Below, in pieces: positions 225-47,815 of a stretch of 53,548 nt of DNA (the first letter of the stretch is position 1; the number at the start of each line of letters is the position of its first letter). Below the pieces are notes generated by a model that worked only from the letters and a program-made list of their open reading frames with translations, ran no database searches and was not told where the DNA came from. Source of the stretch: an uncultured Opitutia bacterium (GTDB lineage Bacteria; Verrucomicrobiota; Verrucomicrobiia; Opitutales; Opitutaceae); contig CAIONS010000030.1 in assembly GCA_903859715.1 (NCBI GenBank), positions 1 to 53,548 on the forward strand. The letters run 5' to 3'. Both the position numbers and the translations under genes were made by a program.

Positions 225-322
225 ATGTGGAACTCAGGAAATCAGGAATCGATCCGTTGAGTTCTGATCAAGGACCGATTGATCTGGTTCGGGGATTGTC
301 CCTGATTTCCTGAGTTCCACAT
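225..322. repeat. Inverted repeat with perfect 22-bp arms
   Basis: The arm at 225-246 is the exact reverse complement of 301-322. The right arm ends 8 nt from the purT stop codon. An identical third copy of the right arm lies at 36296-36317, 4 nt from the stop of an unrelated PhyH gene, so this is a dispersed element and not a purT terminator. Confidence 0.85.
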
Positions 323-330
323 CGAATCCC

Positions 331-1527
331 TCATTCCCTCGTCAGCGTGATCTTCACCGCCGCGGCACAGTCGCGTGCGCGGGCCTTGGCCTCGTCGAGA
401 TTCTCACCGGTCGCCACCGCGACCGCCAGCCGTCGGTGGCCGCGGCATTCCGGTTTGCCGAAGAGCCGCAAGTGCGTCTCGGGCACGGCGAGCGCGGCCT
501 CGAGACCGCTGAAGACTGGCACGCCGTCGCCCTGGCCCAGCAGCGCGACACTGAACGCCGGCCGCAACAACCGGATCGGCGGCACGGGCAGGCCGAGGAT
601 CGCGCGCGCGTGCAGCGCGAACTCCGACCATTGCTGGCTGCCGATGGTCACGAGGCCGGTGTCGTGCGGCCGCGGGCTGACTTCGCTGAAAATGACTTCC
701 TCACCGCGCACAAAGCACTCCACACCGAAGAGTCCCCAGCCTCCGAGCGAACTCACCACCGTTTTCGCCACCCGCTGCGCCTCGGCCCAGGTCTTTTCCG
801 ACATCGGGCATGGCTGCCAGCTTTCGCGATAATCGCCGTCGATCTGGACGTGGCCGATCGGCGGGCAGCATTGCACGCCGTTGGCCGCCGAAACCGTGAG
901 CACGGTGATTTCGTAGTCGAAGCGAATGAAGCCCTCGACGATGCAGCGACCCGAGCCGGCCCGCGCTCCTTCCTGCGAATAGCGCCACGCCACCGGCAGA
1001 TCGGCCGCGGTCTTCACGACACTCTGGCCGTGGCCGCTGGACGACATGAGGGGCTTGAGCACGCAGGGGAAACCGAGCGCGTTCGCCGCGGCCAATGCCT
1101 CGGCCTCGGTGGCAACAAAGCGGTAGGGCGACGTGGGCAGGCCCAGTTGCTCGGCGGCGAGCCGGCGGATGCCCTCGCGGTTCATGGTGAGCTGGGCGGC
1201 GCGGGCCGTGGGTACGACGCGCTGACCGGCCTGTTCCAGTTCGACGAGCACATCGGTCGCGATGGCCTCGATCTCCGGGACAATAATATCCGGTTTCTCG
1301 CGGGCAATGACGCGGCGCAGAGCCAGCGCATCGAGCATCGGAAATACATAACTCCGGTGCGCAACCTGCATGGCGGGGGCGTTCTGGTAGCGGTCGCAGG
1401 CGATGACCTCGCAACCGAGCCGCTGGAGCTCGATGGCGACCTCCTTGCCCAGTTCACCGGAGCCAAGCAGCATAACACGCGTGGCGCCCGCCGTGAGGGG
1501 TGTACCGAGAGTTCCGAGGGTAAGCAT
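331..1527 (-). CDS. purT: Formate-dependent phosphoribosylglycinamide formyltransferase (PurT)
   Basis: PurT makes formyl-GAR from GAR, formate and ATP in the third step of purine synthesis, as a folate-independent alternative to PurN. The 398-residue protein matches the family length (about 392). It shows the N-terminal [16 protein letters not shown] nucleotide fold, the ATP-grasp loop [12 protein letters not shown] and the metal-binding [10 protein letters not shown] segment. The frame stays open upstream to 1875, but that part overlaps tag and has no PurT similarity, so the ATG at 1525-1527 is chosen. A GTG four codons earlier is possible. It lies downstream of tag on the same strand across a 125-bp gap that holds no clear terminator. 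No Shine-Dalgarno sequence is visible. Confidence 0.96.
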
Positions 1528-1652
1528 GCGTCCGATGTTCACACCCAGCCCCCGCTTGGCAAACGGGTTTTGCAAAGCACCAACGTCCCTGAAGGGGTCA
1601 GCCCCTAACCTTTGTGGTCGGACGGTCCGTGCCCGCACATTCCTGGCACGTA

Positions 1653-2231
1653 TCAACCGCGGGAACGGCCACGCCGGTAACAATCCGCCGCATGGTCGTT
1701 CACGATGCCGACCGCTTGCATCCACGCATAGACGATCACGGGGCCGACGAACTTGAACCCGCGCTTTTTCAGGGCGGCGGAGATTTCCTCGGAGAGGGGC
1801 GTTTTTGACGGAAGCGTGGCCGATTTCTTCCAGGTATTCTGGATCGGTTTTCCGCCTGCCATGGTCCAAACCCACGTGGAGAAATCCTCGCCGGCCGCTT
1901 CCATCGCCAGATAGGCGCGGGCGTTGCCGATCGTCGCCTCGATCTTCGCCCGCGAACGGACGATCCCGGCATCCTTCATCAGGCGGTTCACATCCGCCGC
2001 AGTGAACTTCGCCACGACCTTCGGCTTGAAGCCCTTGAAGGCCCGGCGAAACGCGTCACGCTTTCGCAGGATGATGATCCACGCGAGCCCGGCTTGAAAA
2101 CCGTCGAGCACGAGCTTTTCCCACAGGGCGCGGCTGTCGCGCTCGGGCACGCCCCACTCCTCATCGTGGTAGGCACTCATCAACGGGTCATGATCCGCCC
2201 AGGCGCAGCGATGGAGGGTTTTCGTCTTCAT
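1653..2231 (-). CDS. tag: DNA-3-methyladenine glycosylase I (Tag)
   Basis: Tag excises 3-methyladenine from alkylated DNA in base-excision repair. The 192-residue protein covers the whole family (187 in E. coli). The zinc ligands are present with the usual spacing: Cys9 and His22 at the N terminus, His180 and Cys184 near the C terminus. The base-recognition Glu of E. coli Tag (E38) is Asp43 here, in [11 protein letters not shown] recall this variant in many homologues, so I do not read it as inactivating. It lies 21 bp downstream of the STAS gene on the same strand, suggesting cotranscription. Confidence 0.95.
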
Positions 2232-2252
2232 GATGATTTTGGACAGACGCGC

Positions 2253-2708: not shown

Positions 2709-2768
2709 AAATTTCGCCCATTTCAGGAAACCGACAGAAGGAGACTGGAGACAGGGTTCGGATCAGGC

Positions 2769-2875
2769 GAACATCGAACGCTCAACTTCGAACGTCCAAC
2801 GTCGAAGTTCGCATGACCTTTGCTACTCTCCGGATCTCGACGTTGGATGTTCAGCGTTGAATGTTGAACGTTCGG
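2769..2875. repeat. Inverted repeat built of GAACRTTSRACG-like words (family D)
   Basis: The left arm (2769-2805) and right arm (2837-2874) are imperfect reverse complements. Each is made of variations on a roughly 9-nt word (GAACGTTCAAC, CAACGTCGAA, GAACATC). A close relative lies at 3978-4082. It fills the gap between the DUF4337 and STAS genes, which otherwise holds nothing recognisable. Confidence 0.8.
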
Positions 2876-2894
2876 CTTGATCCGGCATCCAACC

Positions 2895-2918: not shown

Positions 2919-2933
2919 GGGCTGCGGATCGGA

Positions 2934-3545: not shown

Positions 3546-3607
3546 GTAGGGCGGGTCTCTGACCCGCCTTCAACGCGCAAGATGGCGGGTCAAAGACCCG
3601 CCCTACC
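3546..3607. repeat. Double inverted repeat, family A (GTAGGGCGGGTCnnnGACCCGCC)
   Basis: The arms at 3546-3568 and 3584-3606 match at 22 of 23 positions as reverse complements. Each arm is itself a hairpin (GCGGGTC, 3-nt loop, GACCCGC), so the element can fold as two small hairpins or one long one. Relatives: 10605-10697, 29385-29446, and the pair 52695-52719 / 53520-53544. Confidence 0.9.
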
Positions 3608-3888: not shown

Positions 3889-3927
3889 GCGTCAAGGGGC
3901 TCCGCAATGGCCGCAGTCGTCAAGCGC

Positions 3928-4126
3928 GTAGCAGCCGACGTGAGGAGGCTGGGTCGGATGTCGGACGAGGCTGAACGGCCAACATTCAACGCTGAACATC
4001 CAACGTCGAAGGCCGGAGAGGATCGAAGGTCGCGCCTCAAACTTCGATGTTGAACGTTCAAAGTCGAACGTTCGATGTTCGGTTGAATCGTCGCTTGCCG
4101 GACAGCCTCCTCATGTTGCCTGCTAC
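3928..4126. repeat. Nested inverted repeats: family B outside, family D inside
   Basis: The outer arms 3928-3952 and 4103-4126 are family B copies in opposite orientation (about 21 of 24 matches). The inner arms 3978-4010 and 4043-4082 are family D. The right outer arm reads GTAGCAG on the minus strand, and its TAG is the stop codon of the protease gene (4123-4125). The whole 199-bp structure separates the protease from the 80-aa gene. Confidence 0.85.
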
Positions 4127-5094
4127 GAACGCGCGGGCATTTCCAGCGGGATGATCGCATGCCGGCGCAACTCGACGCCGCGGAGAAACGTGACAATCGC
4201 CCGTTCGCCGACCCGGTCGCCCGTGAGCAGCTTGTGCAGGACATCGACAGCCGGCGTCCGCGCGTCATCCAGCGCCAGCACGATGTCACCTTCAAGCAGG
4301 CCGGCACGGGTCGCGGGACTGTTCGGCTCCAAGCCGGCGACGAGCACGCCGGTCTCCTGGGTGAGATGGTGGTAGCGCGCGACCTTGCGGATGAGTGGAA
4401 CGTTCTGGCCGGCGACGCCGATGAAACTGCGGCGGATGCGGCCATCCTTGATGAGCCAGGCCACAACCCAGCGGGCGGTGTTGCTCGCGATGGCGAAGCA
4501 GATGCCCTGCGCCGGCCGGATGATGGCAGTGTTCACCCCGATGACCTCGCCTCGCGTGTTGACGAGCGGACCGCCGGAGTTGCCGGGGTTGAGCGCGGCA
4601 TCGGTCTGGATGACGTTGTCGATCAGCCGCCCGGAGGCGCCGCGGAGCGAACGCCCCAGCCCGCTGACGATACCGGCTGTGACCGTTTGCTGGAAGCCCA
4701 TCGGCGAGCCGATCGCGATGGCAATCTGGCCGGGCCGCACCGCACCACTGTCGGCCAGTGTCAGGTGCGCGAGTTCATCGGCGCTCACGCGAAGCACGGC
4801 CAGATCCGTGTCCGGGTCATCGCCGATCAGGTCGGCGGCGAGCTTGCGGCCATCGGCGAGGAAGACCGTCAGTTCGCGCGCGCCATGGACGACATGGCTG
4901 TTGGTGAGCAAGTAGCCATCAGGCGAAATGAAGAAGCCCGAGCCGGATCCGCCGGGAGCGTCGTTGCCGCGGACCTCGATATGAACCACGGCGGGGTGCG
5001 CGGCGGCGACGGCACCGGAGACCGCGTGGGAGTAGGCGTCGATAAGGGATTCGTCCGTCGTCGCGGCCGGGGCATGCGAGAGAAATGAAACCAT
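4123..5094 (-). CDS. Trypsin-like serine protease with C-terminal PDZ domain (S1C, HtrA-like)
   Basis: A 323-residue S1C protease. The catalytic triad is clear: His67 (TNSHVV), Asp97 (DPDTDLAVL) and Ser173 (NPGNSGGPL). A single PDZ domain follows (about residues 230-320, with GVLVAGLEPNSPATRAGLLEGD). Unlike DegP or DegQ it has no signal peptide or membrane anchor at the chosen start MVSFLSHAPAATT, so a cytoplasmic enzyme is implied. The frame is open to 5286, but the upstream residues show no signal sequence either. The stop codon lies within a dispersed repeat arm. The substrate is unknown. Protein quality control is the family's usual role. Confidence 0.9.
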   Translation of the reverse strand: MVSFLSHAPAATTDESLIDAYSHAVSGAVAAAHPAVVHIEVRGNDAPGGSGSGFFISPDGYLLTNSHVVHGARELTVFLADGRKLAADLIGDDPDTDLAVLRVSADELAHLTLADSGAVRPGQIAIAIGSPMGFQQTVTAGIVSGLGRSLRGASGRLIDNVIQTDAALNPGNSGGPLVNTRGEVIGVNTAIIRPAQGICFAIASNTARWVVAWLIKDGRIRRSFIGVAGQNVPLIRKVARYHHLTQETGVLVAGLEPNSPATRAGLLEGDIVLALDDARTPAVDVLHKLLTGDRVGERAIVTFLRGVELRRHAIIPLEMPARS

Positions 5095-5214: not shown

Positions 5215-5227
5215 GGCTGGGGCCGGA

Positions 5228-10562: not shown

Positions 10563-10567
10563 AAGGT

Positions 10568-10724
10568 GCGCAGGCATCCTGCCTGCTCCGAGACTTGGTC
10601 TGAGGTAGGGCGGGACCGCTGGGACCGCCGTCATGTCCGATTGCGTTATGGGTCGATCACGGACGATGCATCGGCGGGCCCAGCGGTCCCGCCCTACCTT
10701 TCGGAGCAGGCAGGACGCCTGCGC
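10568..10724. repeat. Nested inverted repeats: GCGCAGGCNTCCTGCCTGCTC family outside, family A inside
   Basis: The outer arms 10568-10591 and 10701-10724 match at 23 of 24 positions and are themselves partly self-complementary (GCAGG...CCTGC). The inner family A arms lie at 10605-10629 and 10673-10697. The repeat occupies more than half of the 294-bp tadA-sodB gap. The remainder (10725-10856) contains a TTGACG at 10789-10794 that could be a sodB -35, but I see no convincing -10. Confidence 0.85.
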
Positions 10725-10856
10725 TCCAACATACCCGCGAACCCGACGCACATCCCCGGTCCATGAACCGGCAAATCCTCCTCAGCAGTTGACGGCGCCG
10801 GCGAGTCGCGGCACGTTCGCGAGGTTTCCCTCCAACCCGAAAAACGAAATAACATC

Positions 10857-11549: not shown

Positions 11550-11562
11550 GTCTTATTCTCAC

Positions 11563-11715
11563 GTCATCCTGAGCGAAGCCGAAGGATCTCTGTCATTTCT
11601 CACGATATGTCCGTGTTTGATTCGGACACTTGGGCGTCGTCGTGGGAGTAGCTATGGCCGGAGGCGGACTTGAGAGAAATAATCACAGAGATCCTTCGGC
11701 TTCGCTCAGGATGAC
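11563..11715. repeat. Inverted repeat with perfect 31-bp arms (family C, CATCCTGAGCGAAG type)
   Basis: Arms 11563-11593 and 11685-11715 are exact reverse complements. The CATYCTGAGCGNAG core recurs at 34026-34109 and 47725-47815, each time as a pair. Similar cores are scattered through many environmental bacterial genomes. It lies between convergent sodB and tolB. Confidence 0.9.
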
Positions 11716-11748
11716 GACACTTGAGGGAAGGCCCGAAGCGGGCCTGGC

Positions 11749-16387: not shown

Positions 16388-16421
16388 CTAGAGTCGAAAG
16401 TCGAGAGTCCAGAGTCGAAAG
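16388..16421. repeat. Quasi-tandem GAGTCGAAAGTC repeat (family G)
   Basis: Tandem variations on a 10-nt word (GAGTCGAAAG, TCGAGAGTCC, AGAGTCGAAA) lie directly upstream of the EIIA/DisA_N start. A degenerate complementary arm lies at 16455-16476. It fills the gap between nuoA and the fusion gene. A relative lies at 21811-21926. Confidence 0.65.
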
Positions 16422-16491
16422 CCAGTCCATAAAAACCGAGCCGATTCCGTCGGGCTTCTCGACGCTCGACAATCGGCCTTCGGCACCATGG

Positions 16492-21810: not shown

Positions 21811-21926
21811 GGCAGGTCGAGGGTCGATTGCCGGGGAACGATTTCTGATCCGGTTGAACGCCGGCCAGAGCCAGCACGTTGGCCTTGATTCCAAATCGTC
21901 TCTCGATCCTCGTCCCTCGACTCTCC
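21811..21926. repeat. Inverted repeat, family G (GTCGAGGGTCGA words)
   Basis: The left arm starting at 21811 and the right arm 21891-21926 are imperfect complements built of TCGAGGGTCGA / CTCGATCCTCGTCCCTCGA words. It starts two bases after the rpoD stop and occupies most of the rpoD-tatA gap. Confidence 0.7.
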
Positions 21927-21980
21927 GCTCAGCGCGCTTTCCCGCTTTACAGTCGGTGACACCGGCATAGCTTGCGCATC

Positions 21981-24568: not shown

Positions 24569-24600
24569 GATCGGAGTCGCCGGCCCTCGGCGAGCAGAGG

Positions 24601-24740
24601 GCAGAAGTCAGAGGTCAGATGTCGGCACTGGCAAGCCGGGCTGTGGGCGACGCCCGACTTTCATGGACGAGCATCCAGCTCCGCTTGCCGGCCCATTCTT
24701 GCCCTGATCTGACTTCTGAACTCTGACTTCTGATCTCTGG
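24601..24740. repeat. Inverted repeat, family F (AGAAGTCAGAGGTCAGA words)
   Basis: The left arm 24601-24625 and right arm 24704-24740 are imperfect complements. The right arm repeats CTGACTTCTGA, CTCTGACTTCTGATCTCTGG. It fills most of the 259-bp gap between divergent kefB and mreB. A second partial pairing (GGCAAGCCGG with CTTGCCGGCC) lies inside. Confidence 0.8.
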
Positions 24741-25841: not shown

Positions 25842-25863
25842 GGGCGCGATGCGCCCAAGTGGG

Positions 25864-25940
25864 AAGTAACAAGGGACAAGTAACAGGAATTGCCGGCCAC
25901 CGCCTGCCTCTTGCCACTTGACCCTTGATCCTTGTTACTT
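25864..25940. repeat. Inverted repeat, family E (AAGTAACAAGNGACAAG words), mreB-mreC gap
   Basis: The left arm 25864-25886 and right arm 25910-25940 are imperfect complements made of ACTTG/CAAGT words. The right arm ends 8 nt before the mreC GTG start and so occupies its translation-initiation region. Relatives: 32922-32953 and 46062-46198. Confidence 0.85.
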
Positions 25941-25948
25941 AGCCGCAC

Positions 25949-26779: not shown

Positions 26780-26784
26780 AGTAT

Positions 26785-26873
26785 GTGACGTGTGTCATGT
26801 GACCTGTGACCAGCCCATGATTTCCGTCTAAATCTCCGCCTGCTCGTCACAGGTCACACGCCGCACGTCACAC
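26785..26873. repeat. Inverted repeat, family H (GTGACGTGTGTCATGTGACC words), mreC-mreD gap
   Basis: The left arm 26785-26810 and right arm 26846-26873 share a perfectly complementary core (GTGACCTGTGAC / GTCACAGGTCAC) plus diverged ends of the same word. It begins 6 nt after the mreC stop and ends 6 nt before the mreD ATG, so it is effectively the whole spacer. Confidence 0.85.
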
Positions 26874-27398: not shown

Positions 27399-29360
27399 AT
27401 GGCCACCACGGATACCAACCTCGCCGACCGTTCCGGCAGCCTGCTCGAGACGCACAAGAGCTATCAGCCGCGCGTCATCTTTTTCTATTTCGTCATCTTC
27501 ATCCTGCTGGCGACGCTCGTGATTGGCCTCGCCCACGAGCAGCTCTTCAACAGCGCGCGCCACCTCGATTCGGAGCGCATGCAGAACCAGCGCCGGATCC
27601 TCCTGCCCGGCCCGCGCGGCAACATCTATGACCGCGAGGGCCGCCTGCTCGTCGGCAACCGCCCGCGCTTCGCCGTCGTGCTCTACCTCGACGAGCTGAA
27701 ATCCGAGTTCATCAACGAGGCCCGCATCATCCGCCGCAATTATTCCGACGCCGGCGACAAGGACCTGCCCACCCGCGACCAGTTCAACCAGATCGCCCGC
27801 GTCAGCGTCGCCCAGCGCTACCTCGACCAGGTGAACGACATCCTCCACCGGGCCTCCACCGTCGACCGCGTGGATCTCAAGAAGCACTTCGACCGCCAGC
27901 TGCTTCTGCCGTACACGCTCATCGACGACCTCGAGCCCGCGGACTACGCGCGGCTCGTCGAGCGGCTCCCGGTGAAGTCGCCCCTCCAGCTCTACGCTTC
28001 CAGCACGCGCTTCTACCCGTACGGTTCCGCCGCCTCGCACACCCTCGGCTACGTCGGGGTCGAGACCGACCTCAATGTCGAGGATTTCCCCGGCGAAGAC
28101 CTCAAGACGTTCAAGATGAAGGGCACCATCGGCCGCGATGGCCTCGAGAAGGTCTTCGACACCCGCCTGCAGGGCGAGGCCGGCGGCACGATCTTCCGCG
28201 TCAGCCCCGCCGGCTACAAAATCAACCCGCCCCTCGAAAAACGCCTGCCGGTCCAGGGCAAAAACCTCGTCACGTCCCTGGATATCGACCTGCAGCAGGT
28301 CGCCGAGGAAGCCATCGGCGAGCAGACGGGCGCCGCCGTGGCCATCGACGTAAAAACCGGCGAGGTGCTCGTCCTCGCCAGCAAGCCCGACTACAACCTC
28401 TCCGACTTCTCGCCCCGGCTCACGCAGGCGGCCGGTGCGGACATCGAGGCCCGCCAAGCCTGGGCCAATCGCGCCATCAGCGGCGCCTATCCGCCGGGCT
28501 CCACGTTCAAGATCATCACGTCCATCGCCGCGCTCCGCAGCGGTGCCATCAACCCCGACGACCCCATCGTCGACTGCGAGGGCACGCTGCGTAAATATAA
28601 CCACAACTTCGTCTGCGAAAACGGCCTCGTCCATCACGGCGAGATTCTTTTGCGCGAAGCCATCGCCCAGAGCTGCGACATTTATTTCTACACCGCGGCC
28701 TGGCTGACATCCGTCGAAAAGCTCGCCGCCGAGGCCAAGCGTTTTCACCTCGACGAGAAAACCGGCATCGAGCTGCCCAACGAAACCTCCCGGATGGTCG
28801 TGCCCGATCCTGAGTGGAAAATGCGCACCCGGGATGAGAGCTGGGTCCCCGGCGACACCGCCCACATGGGCATCGGCCAGGGCGATGTCCTTGTCACGCC
28901 GCTGCAAATGGCCTGTTTCGTCGCGTCGCTCGCACGGGGCGAGACCGTCACGCATCCCACGCTGCTCCATCAGGCCGATCGTGCCGCGCAGCACAGTGAA
29001 CCCATCGGCCTCAAGCCCGAACAGATGCAGGCGATCCTTGACGGCATGGAAGGCTGCGTGACCCATGGCACCGCCAAGAGCATTTCTTTACCCGCCCTCA
29101 AGCTTCCGGGAGGAATCCGGATCGCCGGCAAAACCGGCACCGCGCAGGTACCCGGCCGGAAGAACGTCGCCTGGTTCATCTGTTTCGCTCCGTTGGAGAA
29201 ACCGGAAATCGCGATTGCCGTGGCCGTCGAGGGCGACACCCCCGGCGAAAGCTATGGTGGTGGCCTCTATGCCGCACCCGTTGCGAATTCCGTGCTCAAA
29301 AAATACTTCGACAAGCAGGCCCACCCGTCCGCGTTCGTGCAGCCGCTCAAGCCGGAGTAA
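27399..29360 (+). CDS. mrdA: Penicillin-binding protein 2 (elongation transpeptidase)
   Basis: A 653-residue class B PBP. There is an N-terminal membrane helix (FFYFVIFILLATLVIGL), a pedestal domain opening with RRILLPGPRGNIYDREGRLL, and the transpeptidase domain. Its motifs are Ser368-x-x-Lys (GSTFKIITS), SCD at 425-427 (the SxD form used by PBP2-type enzymes) and Lys578-Thr-Gly (GKTGTAQ). It cross-links side-wall peptidoglycan with RodA, whose gene is not in the window. Convergent with the transglutaminase gene, with a family A repeat between them. Confidence 0.95.
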   Translation: MATTDTNLADRSGSLLETHKSYQPRVIFFYFVIFILLATLVIGLAHEQLFNSARHLDSERMQNQRRILLPGPRGNIYDREGRLLVGNRPRFAVVLYLDELKSEFINEARIIRRNYSDAGDKDLPTRDQFNQIARVSVAQRYLDQVNDILHRASTVDRVDLKKHFDRQLLLPYTLIDDLEPADYARLVERLPVKSPLQLYASSTRFYPYGSAASHTLGYVGVETDLNVEDFPGEDLKTFKMKGTIGRDGLEKVFDTRLQGEAGGTIFRVSPAGYKINPPLEKRLPVQGKNLVTSLDIDLQQVAEEAIGEQTGAAVAIDVKTGEVLVLASKPDYNLSDFSPRLTQAAGADIEARQAWANRAISGAYPPGSTFKIITSIAALRSGAINPDDPIVDCEGTLRKYNHNFVCENGLVHHGEILLREAIAQSCDIYFYTAAWLTSVEKLAAEAKRFHLDEKTGIELPNETSRMVVPDPEWKMRTRDESWVPGDTAHMGIGQGDVLVTPLQMACFVASLARGETVTHPTLLHQADRAAQHSEPIGLKPEQMQAILDGMEGCVTHGTAKSISLPALKLPGGIRIAGKTGTAQVPGRKNVAWFICFAPLEKPEIAIAVAVEGDTPGESYGGGLYAAPVANSVLKKYFDKQAHPSAFVQPLKPE

Positions 29361-32921: not shown

Positions 32922-32953
32922 CTTGATACTTGCCCCTTGTCACTTGGCACTTC
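32922..32953. repeat. Single family E repeat arm
   Basis: CTTGATACTTGCCCCTTGTC followed by ACTTGGCACTTC, an unpaired copy of the arm found in the mreB-mreC and permease-GldG gaps. It occupies the 64-bp gap between moxR and the DUF58 gene. Confidence 0.75.
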
Positions 32954-32963
32954 CTCTCCCCGT

Positions 32964-33979: not shown

Positions 33980-34161
33980 GATCGCGGAAGCGCGGAGGAG
34001 CGGAAACGCGGAGAAGACCGCTGGTTTGTCATTCTGAGCACAGCGAAGAATCCAGAGCGACTCGGTTAGCAGTATCCAACTGGATTCTTCGCTGCGCTCA
34101 GAATGACAAGATGTGGTCTTGGATTGCCTCCGCGTTTCCGCTCCTCCGCGCTTCCGCGATC
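33980..34161. repeat. Nested inverted repeats: perfect 34-bp family I arms around family C arms
   Basis: The outer arms 33980-34013 and 34128-34161 are exact 34-bp reverse complements built of GCGGAAGCGCGGAGGAGCGG words. The inner arms 34026-34054 and 34081-34109 match at 28 of 29 positions and carry the CATTCTGAGC core. Weaker complementarity joins the two levels. A degraded family I pair lies at 35089-35184. Confidence 0.92.
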
Positions 34162-34172: not shown

Positions 34173-34982
34173 CTATTTCTTACTCCGCCGCGGCCCGTAT
34201 TTTTCCGCCAGGTCCCCGGCGGCATCGTAGATGATCTTCCCGTCTTTGACGAACGGCACGGCCATCGCCCACTCCTTGATCTCGTCGCCACCAATCGGGG
34301 CCGCGGCATACTGCGGCAGATAGATCCGGCGCATGCGGTTGGTCAGGTTGGCGCCGCTGCGGTGCAACGTATAGCTCGTGAAGGCCGCGATGCTGCCCGC
34401 CGGCACGATCACCGGATCGCCCGGGTCGTCCCCCTGGTAGCCCACCAGGTCGTGGGTGCCGGGCTCCTGGATGTGGTCGATGATCCGACCGGCCGTGCCG
34501 CCGCGCGAATGCGGCAGGATGTACGCCGTACCGTTGGCCTCGCTGACATCGTCCAACGTGCACCAGCAGGTCAGGTACGGGGGATGCGCCACCTCAGGAT
34601 GACTCCGCTTTAGGTAGCCGCTGTCCTGGTGCCAGCTGAACTTCATCCCCTGCTCCGCGTTTTTCACGACCCATTGTTCGTTGAACAGATACACTTCCGG
34701 TCCCAGCACCGACTGGGCGATCTCGGCCATCAACGGACTGAAGATGAAATCCCGCATCCGGCTGCTCAGACGGTAGTAGTTGCTGATGAAATAGCGTTTG
34801 CCGCGATGGTTGATGTCTTCGACCTCGACTCCCTTGGCATCCATCATCGAATCCTTGTAACCCAGAAAGTAGGAGCACTCCTCCCGCAGCATCGTGAGCA
34901 TGTCCGGCGGGATGACCCCCGGCAGGATCATGTAGCCTTCACGTTGATAGAGTTCGCGCTGGGCTGGGGTAACAACAGGCAT
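34173..34982 (-). CDS. PhyH-family Fe(II)/2-oxoglutarate-dependent dioxygenase
   Basis: A 269-residue soluble enzyme of the phytanoyl-CoA dioxygenase family. The iron facial triad is complete: His118 and Asp120 (WHQDSGY) and His207 (YTLHRSGANLT). The RMRRIYLPQYAA segment after His207 supplies the 2-oxoglutarate-binding Arg. The N-terminal half has the typical YQREGYMILPGVIPPD opening. The substrate cannot be told from sequence. It lies near a second PhyH gene and a HIBADH-like dehydrogenase on the same strand. Open frame upstream to 35552 is antisense to the dehydrogenase's frame, so the start is set at the ATG 34980-34982. Confidence 0.88.
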   Translation of the reverse strand: MPVVTPAQRELYQREGYMILPGVIPPDMLTMLREECSYFLGYKDSMMDAKGVEVEDINHRGKRYFISNYYRLSSRMRDFIFSPLMAEIAQSVLGPEVYLFNEQWVVKNAEQGMKFSWHQDSGYLKRSHPEVAHPPYLTCWCTLDDVSEANGTAYILPHSRGGTAGRIIDHIQEPGTHDLVGYQGDDPGDPVIVPAGSIAAFTSYTLHRSGANLTNRMRRIYLPQYAAAPIGGDEIKEWAMAVPFVKDGKIIYDAAGDLAEKYGPRRSKK

Positions 34983-35088: not shown

Positions 35089-35184
35089 GATCGCGGAAGC
35101 GCGGAGGAGCGGAAACGCAGAAGCCAGCCAGAATGACAAGACCACGGTCTTCTCCGCGCTTCCGCCTTTCCGCGTTTCCGCGAT
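35089..35184. repeat. Inverted repeat, family I (diverged)
   Basis: The left arm 35089-35123 and right arm 35149-35184 use the same GCGGAAGCGCGGAGGAGCGG words as 33980-34161 but with several changes and a deletion. Between them lies GAATGACAAGACCACGG, a remnant of the family C arm, so it looks like a decayed copy of the same nested element. Confidence 0.8.
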
Positions 35185-36022: not shown

Positions 36023-36033
36023 GATTAAGTTTC

Positions 36034-36272
36034 ACCACGAAGCGCACGAAGTTCACGAAGGCAAACCCTCGCTGATAATACCGGGCCAAACCGCCGATCC
36101 CGGAGGTTGGCCACTAAGAGGCACGAAAATTATCCAAGGTTCTCGCCCTAATCTCCATTGCGCCTATAGGCGCAATGGAGACTCTTTCGCAGCCCTGATC
36201 CCCTTGCGCCTTTTTGTGGCCATCAATCCGATGGATCGAGTCCGGCACCTTCGTGCCCTTCGTGCGCTTGGT
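36034..36272. repeat. Three-level nested inverted repeat
   Basis: Outer arms 36034-36061 and 36248-36272 (CACGAAGCGCACGAAG words, family J). Middle arms 36109-36127 and 36202-36222 (GGCCACNAANAGGC). At the centre is a perfect 30-bp palindrome at 36152-36181. This structure fills nearly all of the 299-bp gap between the dehydrogenase and the second PhyH gene. No gene or clear promoter is seen in the gap. Confidence 0.88.
36152..36181. promoter_or_regulatory. Perfect 30-bp palindrome
   Basis: TCTCCATTGCGCC (36152-36164), TATA, then GGCGCAATGGAGA (36169-36181). Every base is symmetric. It lies in the middle of the larger nested repeat. It could be a dimeric-protein binding site, a hairpin in RNA, or simply the core of the repeat unit. 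Confidence 0.6.
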
Positions 36273-36295
36273 AGTAAAAATCCGAAGGCCTGATT

Positions 36296-36317
36296 CCTGA
36301 TTTCCTGAGTTCCACAT
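36296..36317 (+). repeat. Third copy of the 22-bp arm seen at 225-322
   Basis: Identical over 22 bp to 301-322 and, inverted, to 225-246. No partner arm is present here. It ends 4 nt before the PhyH stop codon. Confidence 0.8.
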
Positions 36318-36321
36318 GAAC

Positions 36322-37846: not shown

Positions 37847-37951
37847 GCCGGTACTCACACCCCCCGGCCGCCCGGTCACAACATGAAAAACCATAGACAA
37901 TCGTCCGTACTCGCGCTCTGTTTGTCCCGCCCTTCAACCTCAATCCCTTTA

Positions 37952-38062
37952 ACCACGGATTTCACGGCTGCCCCGGATTGAGATCGGAATCGTCGATGTT
38001 CGTGACCCGGCTTCTTTCGTTCGTGGCTTTTTTGGATCCGTGTGATTCGCGAAATCCGCGGT
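37952..38062. repeat. Inverted repeat, family M (ACCACGGATTTCACGG)
   Basis: Left arm 37952-37978 and right arm 38036-38062 are imperfect complements (about 20 of 27). It lies between divergent phosphorylase and M48 genes. Confidence 0.75.
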
Positions 38063-38111
38063 CGCGAATTTCCCCAGGCTTTCCCCACCCCAAGCCCCAA
38101 TCCGCCCTCAA

Positions 38112-39367: not shown

Positions 39368-40333
39368 ATGCCCCTGATCGACAAACCTCTCTCCGAACTC
39401 AAAACGTACGCCGGCCGGAATCCCCGCCCGGCGGACTACGACGCCTATTGGGCCGCCGCGCTCAAGGAGCTCGACGCCACCGATCCCAAGCCGGAGCTCG
39501 TCCCGACGAAGGAGATCACCCCGCGCCACAGCGAGGCATTCGACCTATGGTTCACCGGCGTGGGCGGCGCGCGCGTGTACGCCAAGTACGTCCGCCCGAA
39601 AAAATCCTCCGGCAAGAATCCCGCCGTGCTCCAGTTCCACGGGTACACCGGCAACAGCGGTGATTTCTCCGGCCGCCTCGCGTGGTCCGGCGAAGGCTTC
39701 TGCGTCGCCGCCATGGACTGCCGCGGCCAGGGCGGCCGCTCCGAGGACGCCGGCGCTGTGAAGGGCACGACGTACCGAGGCCAGATCATCCGCGGTCTCG
39801 ACGACCCTGATCCGCGCAAGCTGCTTTACCGGCAGATCTTTCTCGATACCGCGCAACTCGCCCGCGTGCTGATGAGTTTCCCCGAGGTCGACGCCGCGCG
39901 CGTCGGCGCAATGGGCGGGTCCCAAGGCGGCGCGCTCACCCTCGCCTGCGCCGCGCTCGAGCCGCGCATCAAACGCGCCGCGCCGGTCTTCCCGTTTCTC
40001 TGCGACTACCAACGCGTCTGGGAAATGGATCAGGCCAAGGATGCCTACGACGAGCTGCGCACGTGGTTCCGCCAGTTCGACCCGCTGCATGCCCGCGAGC
40101 AGGAAATCTTCACGAAGCTCGGCTATATCGACTGCCAGCACCTCGCGCCACGGATCAAGGCCGAAGTCCTGATGTTCACCGGCCTGATGGATTCAGTTTG
40201 TCCGCCGAGCACGCAGTACGCCGCCTACAACAAGATCACGTCCAAGAAGGATGTCGTCCTCTACCCCGACTACGGCCACGAAGGCCTCCCCGGCGAAAGC
40301 GACCGGACATTTAATTTTATGCTGGGGCTTTGA
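39368..40333 (+). CDS. Carbohydrate esterase family 7 (acetylxylan esterase / cephalosporin-C deacetylase-like)
   Basis: A 321-residue alpha/beta hydrolase of the CE7 type. The PADYDAYWAAAL opening, oxyanion RGQGGRS, nucleophile Ser185 in GGSQGGAL, Asp275 in TGLMDSVCPPS and His304 in DYGHEG all match the family. CE7 enzymes remove acetyl groups from xylo-oligosaccharides and related compounds. There is no signal peptide, so it acts on imported, already shortened substrates. No glycoside hydrolase or transporter is adjacent. Confidence 0.93.
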   Translation: MPLIDKPLSELKTYAGRNPRPADYDAYWAAALKELDATDPKPELVPTKEITPRHSEAFDLWFTGVGGARVYAKYVRPKKSSGKNPAVLQFHGYTGNSGDFSGRLAWSGEGFCVAAMDCRGQGGRSEDAGAVKGTTYRGQIIRGLDDPDPRKLLYRQIFLDTAQLARVLMSFPEVDAARVGAMGGSQGGALTLACAALEPRIKRAAPVFPFLCDYQRVWEMDQAKDAYDELRTWFRQFDPLHAREQEIFTKLGYIDCQHLAPRIKAEVLMFTGLMDSVCPPSTQYAAYNKITSKKDVVLYPDYGHEGLPGESDRTFNFMLGL

Positions 40334-40377
40334 GGCACTCCAGTAGTCCAAGAGTCGAATATCTTTCACCGGATAAC

Positions 40378-40896
40378 ATGATTCCGGCTATTCTTCGGTT
40401 TCGTCCGTTCGAAAAGCGCCACGCCCTGGAGATGCTATCTTGGCGTTATGCTCCGCCGTACGACATGTACAATGCAGCCGAGCCTACAGCCGAAGCGGCC
40501 GTCCACGCTCTACTGCGACCCGAATTTCATTACACGGCTGTATTTGACGAGCGGGATGAAATGATAGCGTTTCGTTGTTTTGGTCCCGACGCACAGGTAT
40601 CAGGCGGCGACTACACGGCGCAAGCGTTGGACCTAGGAGGAGGCTTGCGTCCCAATTTAACCGGGAAAGGAATCGGCCGATACGTCATCGCTGCTGCGAT
40701 GAATTATGCCATCGCTCAATTCCACCCACACTTTTTTCGCGTCACTGTGGCCAGCTTCAACCACCGCGCGAAAAAAGTGTGTGTGAAGCTTGGCTATAAA
40801 GTGCTCAGCGAATTCATCCGTCCGTCCGACGGACTGAAATTTGAAATCATGACCCAAACAGCGCAAAAATCTGCGCTTACCATTCCGATAGAGTAG
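40378..40896 (+). CDS. GNAT-family N-acetyltransferase
   Basis: A 172-residue GCN5-related acetyltransferase. The acetyl-CoA-binding motif reads LTGKGIGRYVIAAAMNYA, followed by FRVTVASFNHRAKKVCVKLGY, the usual motif B with Tyr near the end. The N terminus LRFRPFEKRHALEMLSW is also typical. Substrate unknown. Base composition and codon choice are clearly less GC-rich than the neighbours, suggesting recent acquisition. The frame extends upstream to 40330, but the ATG at 40378 fits the family. Confidence 0.85.
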   Translation: MIPAILRFRPFEKRHALEMLSWRYAPPYDMYNAAEPTAEAAVHALLRPEFHYTAVFDERDEMIAFRCFGPDAQVSGGDYTAQALDLGGGLRPNLTGKGIGRYVIAAAMNYAIAQFHPHFFRVTVASFNHRAKKVCVKLGYKVLSEFIRPSDGLKFEIMTQTAQKSALTIPIE

Positions 40897-40959
40897 TTCG
40901 AAATGATCGGCTGATTTAATTGTGATTGAACGGACGAGCGCCCGCACCCACCAACCCAT

Positions 40960-41021
40960 GCGGGCACGGGACGTGCCCGCCCACCCTTTCCTTCGCCGCT
41001 TCGCGCCTTTGCGATTCAACC
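40960..41021. repeat. GC hairpin followed by a single family K arm
   Basis: GCGGGCACG (40960-40968) and CGTGCCCGC (40972-40980) form a perfect 9-bp hairpin. It is followed by CTTCGCCGCTTCGCGCCTTT and GCGATTCAAC (40990-41021), a copy of the family K arm seen paired at 42669-42765. It lies upstream of the 83-aa gene. No T-run is present. Confidence 0.65.
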
Positions 41022-41053
41022 TCTCCCCGCTCCACCTTTTCCCGACTCACTTT

Positions 41054-41305
41054 ATGGAATCATCCCCCAATCTCCGCACCATGGCTGAGTATTACATTCG
41101 CGGTCTGACCGAGGGTTTCATCACCGCCGCGCAAGTCATTGCCTGGGCCGATGAGGTCATCGTCGCCGCGCCCAAGACCGAGGACTGGATGCTCGACATC
41201 TCGACCGCCGGTCCCGACGACCGCATGGGCGTCCTGCATCACCTTCACGCCGTCCAAGGCGAGGTCGATGCCGCCGCCCTGCAGCGCCTGCTGGAGAAAA
41301 AGTAA
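41054..41305 (+). CDS. Small protein of unknown function (83 aa)
   Basis: An 83-residue, predicted helical, soluble protein (TMAEYYIRGLTEGFITAAQV, then GVLHHLHAVQGEVDAAALQRL). No cysteines, signal or known domain. An open frame reaches back to 40922 but runs through a repeat, so the internal ATG at 41054 is preferred. I do not recognise the family. Confidence 0.6.
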   Translation: MESSPNLRTMAEYYIRGLTEGFITAAQVIAWADEVIVAAPKTEDWMLDISTAGPDDRMGVLHHLHAVQGEVDAAALQRLLEKK

Positions 41306-41861: not shown

Positions 41862-41887
41862 CCCCGCGTGTCCCGCACACTCGGTTC

Positions 41888-41922
41888 TCATCCGTGCGCC
41901 TTCGTGTCTGTTCGTGGTTCAC
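41888..41922. repeat. Single family J-like arm
   Basis: CATCCGTGCGCCTTCGTGTC then TGTTCGTGGTTCAC, matching the words of the right arm at 36248-36272. It lies in the 147-bp gap before the secreted-protein gene. The rest of the gap shows nothing clear. Confidence 0.6.
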
Positions 41923-42008
41923 TTCCCCACTCCGGTTTCCCCGGCTTTTTTCTGAATTCCCGGGATTGCAGGGAACTCCCGCGCCGGCAAACTGACCTCA
42001 TCATTCCC

Positions 42009-42668: not shown

Positions 42669-42765
42669 TTGAAACGCGAAGGCGCGAAGGCCGGAACGAA
42701 GACTGAATTAGGGCGGCAGGGCTTTCTTCCGATCGGACTTTGCCCCTTCGCGCCTTTGCGTTTAA
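42669..42765. repeat. Inverted repeat, family K (GAAACGCGAAGGCGCGAAGG)
   Basis: The left arm 42669-42691 and right arm 42743-42765 are complementary with a few mismatches. It starts 10 nt after the stop of the secreted-protein gene and is followed at once by a family B arm at 42773. Confidence 0.8.
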
Positions 42766-42772
42766 AAAATAC

Positions 42773-45208: not shown

Positions 45209-45264
45209 AGACCTCCCTTTTTTGTCATTGCGAGGAGACCGCTCGGGGCTGCGCGAATCAACTA

Positions 45265-45290
45265 TCCGGTTTCCGGTTTCCGGTTTCCGC
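45265..45290. repeat. Short tandem repeat before the permease start
   Basis: Four copies of a 7-nt word (TCCGGTT type) end 6 nt before the ATG at 45297, taking the place of a Shine-Dalgarno. The first part of this gap (about 45226-45240) holds GTCATTGCGAGGAGACC, a short relative of another common environmental repeat. Confidence 0.7.
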
Positions 45291-45296
45291 AATCGT

Positions 45297-46058: not shown

Positions 46059-46061
46059 GGG

Positions 46062-46198
46062 GAAGTAACAAGTGACAGGTACCCAGTAACAAGAAATTCG
46101 CCCCATAAAATGTCCCACCCGTCTCATCTTCCCTGGCCGTTGAAACTTGGTCTTTCTGCCCTGGCTCTTGGCACTTGTTACTTGGGACTTGTTACTTC
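46062..46198. repeat. Inverted repeat, family E, between permease and GldG-like gene
   Basis: The left arm 46062-46093 and right arm 46167-46198 are imperfect complements made of AAGTAACAAG/CTTGTTACTT words. It starts 3 nt after the permease stop and ends 7 nt before the next ATG. Confidence 0.85.
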
Positions 46199-46205
46199 GT
46201 AACCC

Positions 46206-47702
46206 ATGTCCCCCTTCGACAGCTTCCGCACCGCCCGCTGGATCCGCACGTTCAACCTCGTGCTGCAGGCGGTCCTGTTCCTCACGCTGTTCGGCGGGCT
46301 GAACTACCTCGCGCGCAACCATCCCTCGCGCTACGATCTGACCGCCCGGCACCGCTACTCGCTTTCGCCCGAGACCACAGCCTACCTGGGCAACCTGTCG
46401 CAGCCCACCCGCGTGGTCGTGACGATCACCCCGGACTCCGACAACCCCGGGAACCTGCAGGCCTACCGTGACGTCAGCGGCCTGCTCCGCGAGTACGCCT
46501 ACGCCAGCGAGAGCAACCCGAACGGCCGCATCACCGTGGAGTACCTCGATGTCTACAAGAACCGCCACAAGGCCGAGGAATACGGGATCGAGTCGCCGGA
46601 GATCGTCGTGGTGATCTGCGGCGAGAAGCGCCGCGCCCTGACCATCGACGACCTGTACAGCGTGAAGGACAAGCAGCGCGAGGCCTTCCAGGGCGAGCAG
46701 GCGCTGACGGCCGCCCTCCTCGAGGTCTCCAGCCAGGGCCGTAAGAAAATCTATTTCCTCACCGGTCACGGCGAACTCAACCCCGAGGATGTCGATCCCG
46801 TCCGCGGACTCTCCTACCTCAAGGACCAGCTGCACGCGCGCAACTTCGACGTCGACCGTCTCGACCTCGCGACCGTGGGCAAGATCCCCGCCGATGCCGC
46901 CCTGATCGTCGCCGTCTCCCCAGAGGTCGGTTACACCGCCGCCGAGCAGGAAATGCTCCGCCAATATCTCGGCGCCGGCGCCGGCCGCTTCCTCGCCCTG
47001 CTCGCGCCCGCCCAGCCGCACGGCCTGGCGAACCTGCTGCTCGACTGGGGCATTCTCATCGACGATGACGTCATCTATGATCCGGGCGCCGGCTACATGA
47101 CCGAGGAAGGCGACCTGATCCTGAAGATTTTCCAACCCCATCCCATCACGCAGGCGCTCATCGACCGTCAGATGCCGCTGCGCATCGGGCAGGCCCGCAG
47201 CGTGCGGCCCGATCCCGGCCGCAAGCTCGGCGGCGGCCTGACCGTCACCACGCTCGCCGTCACCTCCAAGGACGCCTGGGGCGAGGTCAGCTACCGCCTG
47301 CACAACGCGCCGGAATACAATGCGGGCTACGACATCAAGAACGACCGGCCCGGCCTCGAGCCGCCCGATCATCTCGGCGTCGTCATCGCCTCCGAACGGG
47401 TCTCGGCGCGCGCCGGACTCGACTTCAGTGTGCGCGGCGGCCGCATTGTCGTCTTCGGCACCGGCGACCTGATCGCCAACAACCGCATCGCCCTGCCCGG
47501 CAACCTCGACATTTTCCTCAGCGCGGTGAACTGGGCCGTCGACCGCGACACCCAGTTCAACATTCCCGTGCGCCCGATCGAGCGCTTCCAGCTCTCCCTC
47601 AGTGCCAGCGAACTGTCCCGTCTCCGCAGCGTCCTGCTGCTCGGCCTGCCCGGCGCCGTCCTGCTGCTCGGCCTCATCGTCTACTGGACGCGGCGGCGGT
47701 AG
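46206..47702 (+). CDS. GldG-like ABC transporter auxiliary protein
   Basis: A 498-residue protein with one N-terminal helix (LVLQAVLFLTLFGGLNYL), a large extracytoplasmic part and a C-terminal helix (LRSVLLLGLPGAVLLLGLIVYW) followed by basic residues. RYDLTARHRYSLSPETTAYL is the conserved opening of the GldG/ABC-auxiliary family, and KKIYFLTGHGELNPED its central motif. It is probably part of the transporter with the two genes upstream. The substrate is unknown. Confidence 0.88.
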   Translation: MSPFDSFRTARWIRTFNLVLQAVLFLTLFGGLNYLARNHPSRYDLTARHRYSLSPETTAYLGNLSQPTRVVVTITPDSDNPGNLQAYRDVSGLLREYAYASESNPNGRITVEYLDVYKNRHKAEEYGIESPEIVVVICGEKRRALTIDDLYSVKDKQREAFQGEQALTAALLEVSSQGRKKIYFLTGHGELNPEDVDPVRGLSYLKDQLHARNFDVDRLDLATVGKIPADAALIVAVSPEVGYTAAEQEMLRQYLGAGAGRFLALLAPAQPHGLANLLLDWGILIDDDVIYDPGAGYMTEEGDLILKIFQPHPITQALIDRQMPLRIGQARSVRPDPGRKLGGGLTVTTLAVTSKDAWGEVSYRLHNAPEYNAGYDIKNDRPGLEPPDHLGVVIASERVSARAGLDFSVRGGRIVVFGTGDLIANNRIALPGNLDIFLSAVNWAVDRDTQFNIPVRPIERFQLSLSASELSRLRSVLLLGLPGAVLLLGLIVYWTRRR

Positions 47703-47724
47703 CGCCGGCGCCTTATGCCATGAT

Positions 47725-47815
47725 TGTCATTCTGAACGCAGTGAAGAATCCACTTGGATAGCATCGAAGCGCGCCGCGAGGTCTCACTGGATTCTTCGCT
47801 GCGCTCAGAATGACA
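47725..47815. repeat. Inverted repeat, family C
   Basis: The left arm 47725-47752 and right arm 47788-47815 are near-perfect complements around a CATTCTGAACGCAG core. It fills the gap between the GldG-like and DUF4340 genes. Confidence 0.88.

What the first reader, a model, noticed from the sequence alone, without database searches (positions are those of the whole stretch)
225..47815. Intergenic space dominated by many unrelated families of nested, word-like inverted repeats
At least 15 gaps hold inverted repeats from a dozen or so sequence families with a shared architecture: two complementary arms of 22-38 bp around a short centre, each arm often made of 8-11 nt near-repeats. Several are nested two or three deep (3928-4126, 10568-10724, 33980-34161, 36034-36272), with one family inside another. 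Some arms are perfect over 31-34 bp, so they are recent or under constraint. The families share no sequence, only form. I do not know a published class that fits all of them. They may be MITE/REPIN-like elements that insert into each other, or hairpins shaping transcripts. No transposase is linked to any of them here.
Basis: partly seen in the sequence, partly recalled or inferred. Interest (0 to 1): 0.75.

Follow-up and report, generated by a model that had tools for sequence, protein, structure and literature searches.

The report
Inverted "word" repeats that bracket genes
Many gaps between genes in this bacterium hold mirror-image strings of short repeated DNA "words", and most of these word families match the sequences that form the two ends of tiny one-gene units carrying one of two little-understood proteins, so they look like gene-less relatives of such units.

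Summary
The inverted repeats are real: 15 of 35 window gaps hold one, against a mean of 0.12 in shuffles. They are not one class. Some are known GTAG- or CGTC-tagged REPs. The rest are arms of degenerate tandem words, period 7 or 8-10.

In this genus and its relatives, GxxExxY nuclease genes (PF13366) are bracketed by inverted word arms in 34 of 49 cases, against 3 of 213 other small genes; 39 of 49 with flanks reaching slightly into the gene, arm period 8-10, never 7. Four-helix-bundle genes (PF05635, the 23S rRNA intervening-sequence family) are bracketed in 30 of 48, period 7 in 23. Period against gene family: p=5e-13. Fourteen of 21 word items in the window match arms of such genes; 0 of 6 REP or REP-like items do.

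Best reading: intergenic word repeats are gene-less relatives of two kinds of one-gene, hairpin-ended elements. They sit near stop codons, turn over between close species, and nest concentrically as if new ones enter the tips of old hairpins. Association is shown; mobility and enzymology are inferred. I found no paper linking GxxExxY to repeats, in a limited library.

The parts
225..322 (.). Solo IR, arms ATGTGGAACTCAGGAAATCAGG (22/22), same arms as those bracketing the GxxExxY gene at G000:C9:158339-158680
2765..2877 (.). Heptad IR (CGAACGT words), matches arms of a four-helix-bundle gene in G003 (L478)
3546..3606 (.). GTAG-tagged REP dimer
   Evidence: no match to gene-bracketing arms
3927..4127 (.). 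Outer GTAGCAG-type IR around an inner heptad IR, common centre
3976..4085 (.). Inner heptad IR, same family as 2765-2877
10565..10727 (.). Outer GC-rich IR (GCGCAGGCNTCCTGCCTGC)
10603..10699 (.). Inner GTAG-tagged REP dimer
11562..11716 (.). CGTC-tagged REP dimer
16388..16480 (.). Heptad array pair (GTCGARA words); above the shuffle maximum against gene arms but not by the margin used
21812..21930 (.). Heptad arm pair (GTCGAGG words); no match to gene arms above shuffles
24595..24739 (.). Heptad IR (CAGANGT words), matches four-helix gene arms of G010 (L487, itself just under the bracket threshold)
25858..25941 (.). Heptad IR (AAGTAAC words), matches arms of the G000 four-helix gene at C44:18786 (L471)
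26784..26872 (.). Heptad IR (GTGACNT words); GTGTAAG words at the same site in G010; no match to gene arms above shuffles
32925..32955 (.). Lone heptad arm, AAGTAAC family
33980..34161 (.). Octad IR (GCGGAAGC words), 34/34; like the arms of the G000 GxxExxY gene at C39:1755
34026..34109 (.). CGTC-type (TGTC) REP dimer nested near the centre of 33980-34161
35090..35184 (.). Octad IR, same family as 33980-34161
36030..36279 (.). Nonad IR (CACGAAG words); like the arms of the G000 GxxExxY gene at C61:91363
36105..36225 (.). 116-bp TTGGCCAC dispersed element inside 36030-36279; no match to gene arms
36288..36318 (.). Lone arm of the ATGTGGAACTCAGG family
37944..38065 (.). Nonad IR (CACGGATTT words); best match G027 GxxExxY arms; the same words flank the G000 GxxExxY gene at C56:328524 by eye
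40985..41020 (.). Lone CGCGAAG-type arm, matches GxxExxY arms of G005 (L424)
41885..41925 (.). Lone CACGAAG/CACGGAG-type arm; not matched by the margin used
42669..42766 (.). Octad/nonad IR (CGCGAAGG words), matches GxxExxY arms (L416)
45258..45292 (.). Lone heptad arm (GGTTTCC words); like the arms of the G000 four-helix gene at C51:5244 (L470)
46062..46198 (.). Heptad IR (AAGTAAC words); other words at the same site in related species; not matched to gene arms by the margin used
47725..47815 (.). CGTC-type (TGTC) REP dimer, also at this site in G004 and G005
47820..47850 (.). Lone heptad arm (TTTCAAC words); no match to gene arms above shuffles

Best explanation
The gaps hold two layers of repeats. 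One is ordinary GTAG/CGTC REPs. The other, the word-like repeats, are gene-less (solo) relatives of two kinds of small one-gene elements found elsewhere in this genome and genus. In kind A a GxxExxY gene (PD-(D/E)XK nuclease fold) lies between inverted arms of 8-10 nt words. In kind B a four-helix-bundle gene (the 23S rRNA intervening-sequence protein family) lies between inverted arms of mostly 7 nt words. Shown: the bracketing, the match between arm period and gene family, the likeness of most window word families to gene-bracketing arms, presence or absence at orthologous sites, placement close after stop codons, scarcity in divergent gaps, common centres of nested repeats. Inferred: the arms are the recognition ends of the element; the encoded protein (a nuclease in kind A, a hairpin- or RNA-binding four-helix protein in kind B) acts on the hairpin that the two arms form; insertion goes to the tip of an existing hairpin, as rRNA intervening sequences sit at helix tips, which gives concentric nests; solo copies are moved in trans. 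Words drift or are rewritten, but both arms of one copy tend to stay matched.
For: Bracketing, strict alignment score 13 or more: GxxExxY 34 of 49, other small genes 3 of 213, upstream of one GxxExxY against downstream of another 70 of 2352, Fisher 1.7e-27; with flanks reaching slightly into the gene 39 of 49 and 86 of 2352 swapped. Four-helix genes 30 of 48, swapped 44 of 2256. Arm period: four-helix 7 in 23, 8 in 4, undefined 3; GxxExxY 8 in 13, 9 in 13, 10 in 8, undefined 5, 7 in 0; Fisher 4.7e-13. A scan of 841 genes of any kind found 10 bracketed at score 15 or more; its top hit was a four-helix gene, found before I looked for that family. Four of five GxxExxY genes of G000 pass the rule; the fifth scores 11 and shows CACGGAT arms by eye. 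Window: 14 of 21 word items match gene arms beyond shuffles, 0 of 6 REP or REP-like items. GxxExxY keeps D and ExK in all six aligned. Nested repeats share a centre: 22 pairs, mean normalised offset 0.24 against 0.5, p=6e-4. At one site G000 and G005 hold a four-helix gene with heptad arms, G010 only a weak short repeat (1% of shuffles reach its score), G003 neither. After what looks like one transporter gene, five genomes carry a GxxExxY gene with different words, each pair of arms matched (orthology by eye). Median distance to the upstream stop 16 nt; gaps with IR: 53 of 262 co-directional, 14 of 47 convergent, 6 of 47 divergent; in the 120-250 nt class 24 of 69, 9 of 14, 1 of 19.
Against: No gene remnant was found in the repeat centres of 60 nt or more searched, so 'deletion derivative' is not shown. 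No target-site duplication was recognised (by eye). Heptad centres are not shared between copies (3 of 109 pairs above a 1% null), unlike a classical MITE. 10 of 49 GxxExxY and 18 of 48 four-helix genes fail the bracket rule, including the G000 four-helix gene at C27. Genes at the same site in different species were counted apart, so the counts are not independent. Seven of 21 word items do not pass. G001 has both gene families but few solo repeats (2 gaps, 0.29 per kb intergenic, against 1.42 in G000); G009, G010 and G003 are also low by this measure (0.36, 0.49, 0.56). Only 11 of 118 nonad loci of the named collection hold a GxxExxY frame, two of them fragments and one 2.5 kb away; a common ABC-ATPase family came next with 8 loci. 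Some gene-bearing units look vertically inherited at fixed sites. No activity was tested.
Confidence: 0.66

Rival explanations
1. All are selected transcript hairpins. Inverted words are kept because they stabilise or end mRNAs, tandem words make pairing robust to slippage, and short genes between arms are passengers.
For: Placement close to stop codons and scarcity in divergent gaps; very stable predicted folds of the 14 nested regions folded; arms of one genome pair better than arms of different genomes at the same site, 22.3 against 14.5, in 37 pairs with a repeat in both; repeats recur at orthologous gaps with different words, odds ratio 2.1 after removing similar pairs, p=0.003.
Against: Does not predict that two specific gene families are bracketed, nor that arm period depends on the family. 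Many orthologous gaps are simply empty. In G002, G004 and G009 one site has two arrays, alike across the three, that do not pair well. Recurrence could reflect gaps that tolerate insertion; pairs are not independent.
Confidence: 0.17
2. A mutational process alone: polymerase slippage makes heptad and nonad arrays and template switching copies them into inverted partners; words arise anew at each site and nothing is mobile.
For: Words change at orthologous sites while arms stay matched in many cases; a pure run of 12 AGCTATC words in G003; heptad centres not shared; published proposal of 7-nt slippage cited in PMC4679880 and PMC4692102.
Against: The same nonad arm, free only at fixed positions, occurs in named genomes of many phyla and 38 times in G000, with the reversed pattern absent in the 288 genomes searched. 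Gene-family specificity of the period.
Confidence: 0.1
3. Everything is REP/RAYT material: GTAG/CGTC REPs and TIRs of tyrosine transposases that have diverged.
For: REPs are present; the genome has one long RAYT-like gene with perfect 29-bp terminal repeats and a Y1_Tnp fragment between two copies of a GTAG-tagged repeat.
Against: Those ends are unrelated to the words. G008 and G011 have no Y1_Tnp match but strong heptad signal in small samples. Heptad, octad and nonad arms lack GTAG/CGTC tags. REP items do not match gene-bracketing arms.
Confidence: 0.04

Closest known systems
23S rRNA intervening sequences with S23p ORF (PF05635/TIGR02436), e.g. PMC4990558 (start of abstract and passages seen)
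   Same: Terminal inverted repeats forming a long stem around a four-helix-bundle ORF; described as replacing the small tetraloop at the tip of an rRNA helix; called selfish.
   Different: Here the units lie between protein genes, the arms are tandem words, mostly 7 nt, that differ by site and species, solo forms are abundant, and a second gene family (GxxExxY) has the same layout with 8-10 nt words.
GTAG and CGTC REPs, REPtrons and TIRtrons (PMC3733652; abstract, first two parts of Results and passages seen)
   Same: Several window sites are of this kind; gene-bearing and solo forms sharing ends is the same logic; REP dimers inside palindromes are reported there for A. variabilis and H. neapolitanus.
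   Different: Word repeats have no GTAG/CGTC tag and are tied to GxxExxY or four-helix genes, not tyrosine transposases.
Heptamer inverted repeats of Xanthomonas and Nostoc (PMC4692102; passages seen)
   Same: Tandem 7-nt words, as inverted pairs in 70 and 75 cases in two Xanthomonas, close to the upstream gene, mostly between the same genes but variable in length and sequence.
   Different: One G-rich word type per genome studied there; many words here, and a link to a gene family that the passages seen do not make.
Nostoc trnL intron P6b heptanucleotide stems (PMC4476775; abstract and passages seen)
   Same: Stem arms of 7-nt repeats whose class is replaced while the structure is kept.
   Different: One intron locus; here many intergenic loci.
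TAACTGA direct repeats of Beggiatoaceae (PMC4679880; abstract and passages seen)
   Same: Intergenic heptamer words shared by distant phyla.
   Different: Direct, one exact word, mostly just upstream of start codons.

Membership tests
CGTC REP | CGTC or TGTC tag at the outer end | tested here: met
   11562 CGTC, 34026 and 47725 TGTC
CGTC REP | head-to-head dimers in many copies | tested here: met
   138 BLAST matches of the arm query in G000 (both strands of a site can count, and only 40 of 51 candidates were scored)
GTAG REP | GTAG tag and inverted dimer | tested here: met
   3546-3606, 10603-10699
GTAG REP | RAYT gene flanked by the same repeat | tested here: inconclusive
   of 2 Y1_Tnp matches in G000 one has unrelated 29-bp ends; the other, a weak fragment, lies between two direct copies of a GTAG-tagged repeat with another body, absent from the window
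GTAG/CGTC REP (word repeats) | GTAG or CGTC tag | tested here: not met
   heptad, octad and nonad arms carry no such tag at their ends, by reading
IVS / S23p element | terminal inverted repeats around a PF05635 ORF | tested here: met
   30 of 48 genes outside the window; no such gene in the window
IVS / S23p element | located in 23S rRNA | tested here: not met
   window repeats are intergenic; no Rfam match in the window
IVS / S23p element | excised by RNase III | not testable with these tools
   needs RNA
MITE | terminal inverted repeats plus conserved interior | tested here: inconclusive
   met for the 116-bp TTGGCCAC element; not met for heptads
MITE | target-site duplication | tested here: inconclusive
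   none recognised by eye in aligned flanks
MITE | gene-bearing partner with the same ends | tested here: met
   gene-bearing units with like arms; that they are autonomous is inferred
heptamer SSR / STRR | tandem 7-nt units, intergenic | tested here: met
   lag 7, 14, 21 peaks
heptamer SSR / STRR | near-identical units | tested here: not met
   most arrays listed are degenerate; G003 has one pure run of 12 units

The most novel reading that the evidence does not exclude
A previously unrecognised class of tiny mobile elements spread over many bacterial phyla: two inverted strings of short words with one small gene between them, either a GxxExxY nuclease (8-10 nt words) or a four-helix-bundle protein (7 nt words), plus large numbers of gene-less copies. 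Elements seek the tips of existing hairpins, so they stack concentrically, and the words are rewritten over time with both arms kept in step. rRNA intervening sequences and the heptamer repeats of Xanthomonas and cyanobacteria would be members.
Probability: 0.4. Interest if true: 0.92.

Novelty: new variant of a known kind. Interest (0 to 1): 0.8.

Why it matters
GxxExxY proteins and four-helix-bundle (S23p-like) proteins are named in databases by motif or fold, without a settled function that I know of; a systematic bracket of inverted words gives them a testable role. It would tie together isolated puzzles: heptamer repeats in cyanobacteria and Xanthomonas, rRNA intervening sequences, and short 'CACGAAG'-type repeats in many phyla. 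It also offers a natural system in which recognition sequences change quickly while the two ends stay matched.

Tried and rejected
RAYT as driver of the words: rejected. Purine-rich left arm as a universal rule: fails at cluster level, 8 clusters above and 18 below 0.5; it holds for the large nonad cluster (0.62), and nonad arms of the named collection have their partner downstream in 49 of 107 and upstream in 4 of 107. Conserved palindromic flanks of the 116-bp element: only a weak excess (p=0.015 beyond 6 nt, 28 of 35 copies usable). Gene remnants inside repeat centres: none. Site conservation as proof of function: 43 of 583 orthologous gap pairs have a repeat in both, arms alike in 13 and not in 30; two of the six unlike G000-G005 pairs are probably the same nested element read at different layers, and the baseline is high, so I do not lean on it. 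The four-helix block (4 of 48) is discarded: its model had, I think, absorbed translated arms and so misplaced the gene start; one search replaces it. (32 of 51) counted three opposite-strand false genes; one search replaces it. In one search I had missed a GTAG-tagged repeat beside the second Y1_Tnp match because I searched one strand; one search mends this.

Literature by sequence words and by terms (one search found no paper): none that I saw listed on the nonad words, none linking GxxExxY to repeats (2 papers hold the word, passages read). One search found 126 papers, 20 listed. PMC12306157 (RepRanger) was looked at by passages only. The library is open-licence PMC only.

Not done: named whole genomes of Xanthomonas or Nostoc were not examined; empty sites of GxxExxY units were not sought; the viral loci were not read.

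Full report
WHAT IS THERE. The window is contig C30 of an unnamed 3.18-Mb genome, G000. A relative in the same family, G014, is a single contig of 5,957,605 bases, the size I recall for Opitutus terrae PB90-1, so I take this to be an Opitutaceae-like bacterium; that label is recalled, not tested. Gene calls are my own codon-usage calls. In the window 15 of 35 gaps of at least 60 nt hold a gapless inverted repeat (IR) of score 12 or more, against 0.12 in shuffles. In 453,548 bases of the same genome there are 68 intergenic and 3 coding IR calls of score 15 or more, none in 3 shuffles. Intergenic DNA has sharp autocorrelation at 7, 14, 21 and at 8-9 nt. In 74 pairs of neighbouring heptad arrays sharing a gap (genus and three relatives), 28 are reverse complements at 6 of 7 positions or better and 5 are direct repeats; random pairs give 2-3%.

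TWO LAYERS. Some sites are REPs as classified by Di Nocera and colleagues (PMC3733652): CGTC-type dimers at 11562-11716, 34026-34109 and 47725-47815, GTAG dimers at 3546-3606 and 10603-10699, with lone GTAG motifs and related GC-rich forms elsewhere. The rest are word arms. By a rough rule the 453-kb sample of G000 has 35 nonad/octad, 15 heptad, 15 GTAG-like, 9 CGTC and 15 unclassified IRs.

PLACE. IRs lie a median 16 nt after the upstream stop and 54 nt before the next start in co-directional gaps (53 cases). Gaps with an IR: 53 of 262 co-directional, 14 of 47 convergent, 6 of 47 divergent; in gaps of 120-250 nt 24 of 69, 9 of 14 and 1 of 19, in longer gaps 20 of 39, 4 of 9 and 4 of 15.

TURNOVER. 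Across same-genus genomes (median protein identity 93% for G000-G005, 80-86% for G000 with G001, G003, G010) the same gap may be empty or may hold a repeat of another family. In gap 46059-46205 G000 has AAGTAAC words, G010 TTGAAAG words, and G004 and G009 GGTCATG on one side and CTCGTCA on the other. Of 583 orthologous gap pairs, 43 have an IR in both, 13 with similar arms and 30 without; odds ratio 3.0 for co-occurrence, 2.1 (p=0.003) after removing similar pairs. The pairs are not independent. In 37 pairs, arms from one genome pair better (22.3) than arms of two genomes at one site (14.5) or of different sites (8.5).

NESTING. Among 201 IRs of the genus contigs then held, 22 nested pairs share a centre more closely than random insertion would give: mean normalised offset 0.24 against 0.5, KS p=6e-4, median centre offset 4 nt; 11 pairs cross. 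Some pairs come from the same triple nest, and a few are far off centre. The nested regions then fold as one long layered hairpin (14 folded). Part of this is a dispersed element: the 116-bp TTGGCCAC family has conserved ends and centre and 35 distinct copies in the DNA held. In the search with the larger nest (at most 40 candidates scored per genome) there are 56 matches in G000, 62 in G003, 49 in G005, 16 in G009, 3 in G004 and none at 1e-6 in G001, G008, G010, G011 and G014. The two-layer element at C56:30956 has copies at two other places in G000 and, besides its own site, two in G005 over nearly its full length.

THE GENE LINK. The nonad arm TTTNACCACGAAGNNCACGAAG occurs 38 times in G000 and in 20 of 288 genomes of the phylum; the reversed pattern is absent. 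About two hits are expected by chance (my estimate from 19 fixed bases). Of 107 such loci with enough flank, 49 have a reverse-complement partner downstream and 4 upstream. The most recurrent reading frame near them was a GxxExxY protein (TIGR04256, PF13366; 9 loci by clustering, just ahead of an ABC-ATPase family with 8); by profile it is in 11 of 118 loci, 9 of them with the motif within about 200 nt, two of those being fragments, and in L165, L183 and L212 it lies between two arms.

I then took PF13366 genes of the genus and relatives up to the order: 30 loci chosen by the search tool and 20 that I chose from its list, giving 50 distinct genes, 49 scorable. With a strict local alignment of upstream against reverse-complemented downstream flank, 34 of 49 score 13 or more, against 3 of 213 other genes of 270-700 nt (one of these three is the four-helix gene below) and 70 of 2352 swapped flanks. 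With flanks reaching a little into the gene, because start and stop codons can lie in the arms, it is 39 of 49 and 86 of 2352. A scan of 841 genes of any kind found 10 bracketed at 15 or more; the top hit was a 138-aa four-helix-bundle gene of G005 (TIGR02436) between heptad arms, and one of the others is the window gene 34173-34931, which merely lies between two octad IRs. PF05635 genes were then collected (30 loci by the tool, 20 by me, and L373): 48 genes scored, 30 bracketed, 44 of 2256 swapped. Arm period separates the two: 7 in 23 and 8 in 4 of the four-helix arms; 8, 9 or 10 in 34 and 7 in none of the GxxExxY arms (3 and 5 undefined); p=4.7e-13. Genes at one site in several species are counted apart.

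BACK TO THE WINDOW. Fourteen of 21 word items match the 76 arms of these genes beyond the maximum of 20 shuffles plus two points (the arm set admits scores from 11 or 12). Several match G000's own genes: 225-322 and 36288 the GxxExxY gene at C9:158339; 33980 and 35090 that at C39:1755; 36030 that at C61:91363; 25858 and 32925 the four-helix gene at C44:18786; 45258 that at C51:5244. None of six REP or REP-like items match. The window itself holds neither gene. After what reads as an ABC-transporter gene, G002, G004, G008, G010 and G014 each have a GxxExxY gene with different words and matched arms (orthology by eye). At C9:130588 G000 and G005 have a four-helix gene with heptad arms; G010 has only a weak short repeat and G003 neither.

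HOW IT MAY WORK. Kind A encodes a PD-(D/E)XK-fold protein with D and ExK invariant in six aligned sequences, so nucleic-acid cutting is likely. Kind B encodes the family of the rRNA intervening-sequence protein; those units have a terminal stem and are reported to replace the tetraloop of an rRNA helix (PMC4990558, passages). A rule of insertion at hairpin tips would explain concentric nests. Matched arms fit recognition of the two-arm hairpin. These steps are inference.

AGAINST. No gene remnants in solo centres, no recognised target duplications, G001 poor in repeats despite having both genes and G003, G009 and G010 also lower than G000, 10 of 49 and 18 of 48 genes unbracketed, and samples of 20 kb or less for most other genomes.

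NOVELTY. Gene-plus-ends units with solo copies are a known kind (REPtron/REP, rRNA intervening sequences). The pairing of GxxExxY with 8-10 nt words and of four-helix proteins with 7 nt words in intergenic DNA did not turn up in searches of the library held. I call it a new variant, with a 0.4 chance that it is a class of its own.

Noticed in passing
window 1594-1618; G000:C47:20293-21351 (L116 10293-11351): A RAYT-like gene (Y1_Tnp) in this genome is flanked by perfect 29-bp inverted ends TGATGGGGTCAGCCCCTAACCTTTGTGGT; window 1594-1618 holds a lone 25-bp exact copy of most of that end.
   Followed up: partly
G000:C48 about 36-550 (L117): A weak Y1_Tnp fragment lies between two direct copies of a GTAG-tagged repeat (GTAGGGCGAATCC...), a repeat not present in the window.
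   Followed up: no
window 40334-41080: Long 'gap' that contains a 188-aa frame (40330-40896) looking like an acetyltransferase by eye; the IR at 40723-40785 lies inside it.
   Followed up: no
G003:C6 about 27623-27900 (G003b): A pure tandem run of 12 AGCTATC words followed by a degenerate inverted partner, as if caught during expansion.
   Followed up: no
Viral contigs, e.g. IMGVR_UViG_3300003358_000002: The nonad arm is in 70 stretches of viral contigs, several in one 45.9-kb contig; could be phage-borne or mislabelled host DNA.
   Followed up: no
G002, G004, G009 gap orthologous to 46059-46205: Left array of GGTCATG words and right array of CTCGTCA words, similar across three species though the two arrays do not pair well.
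   Followed up: partly
L010:18154-18293 and copies in G005: A CGTC dimer with about 20 nt of flank matches five further places in G005 over about 105-140 bp, as if the unit is longer than the dimer.
   Followed up: no
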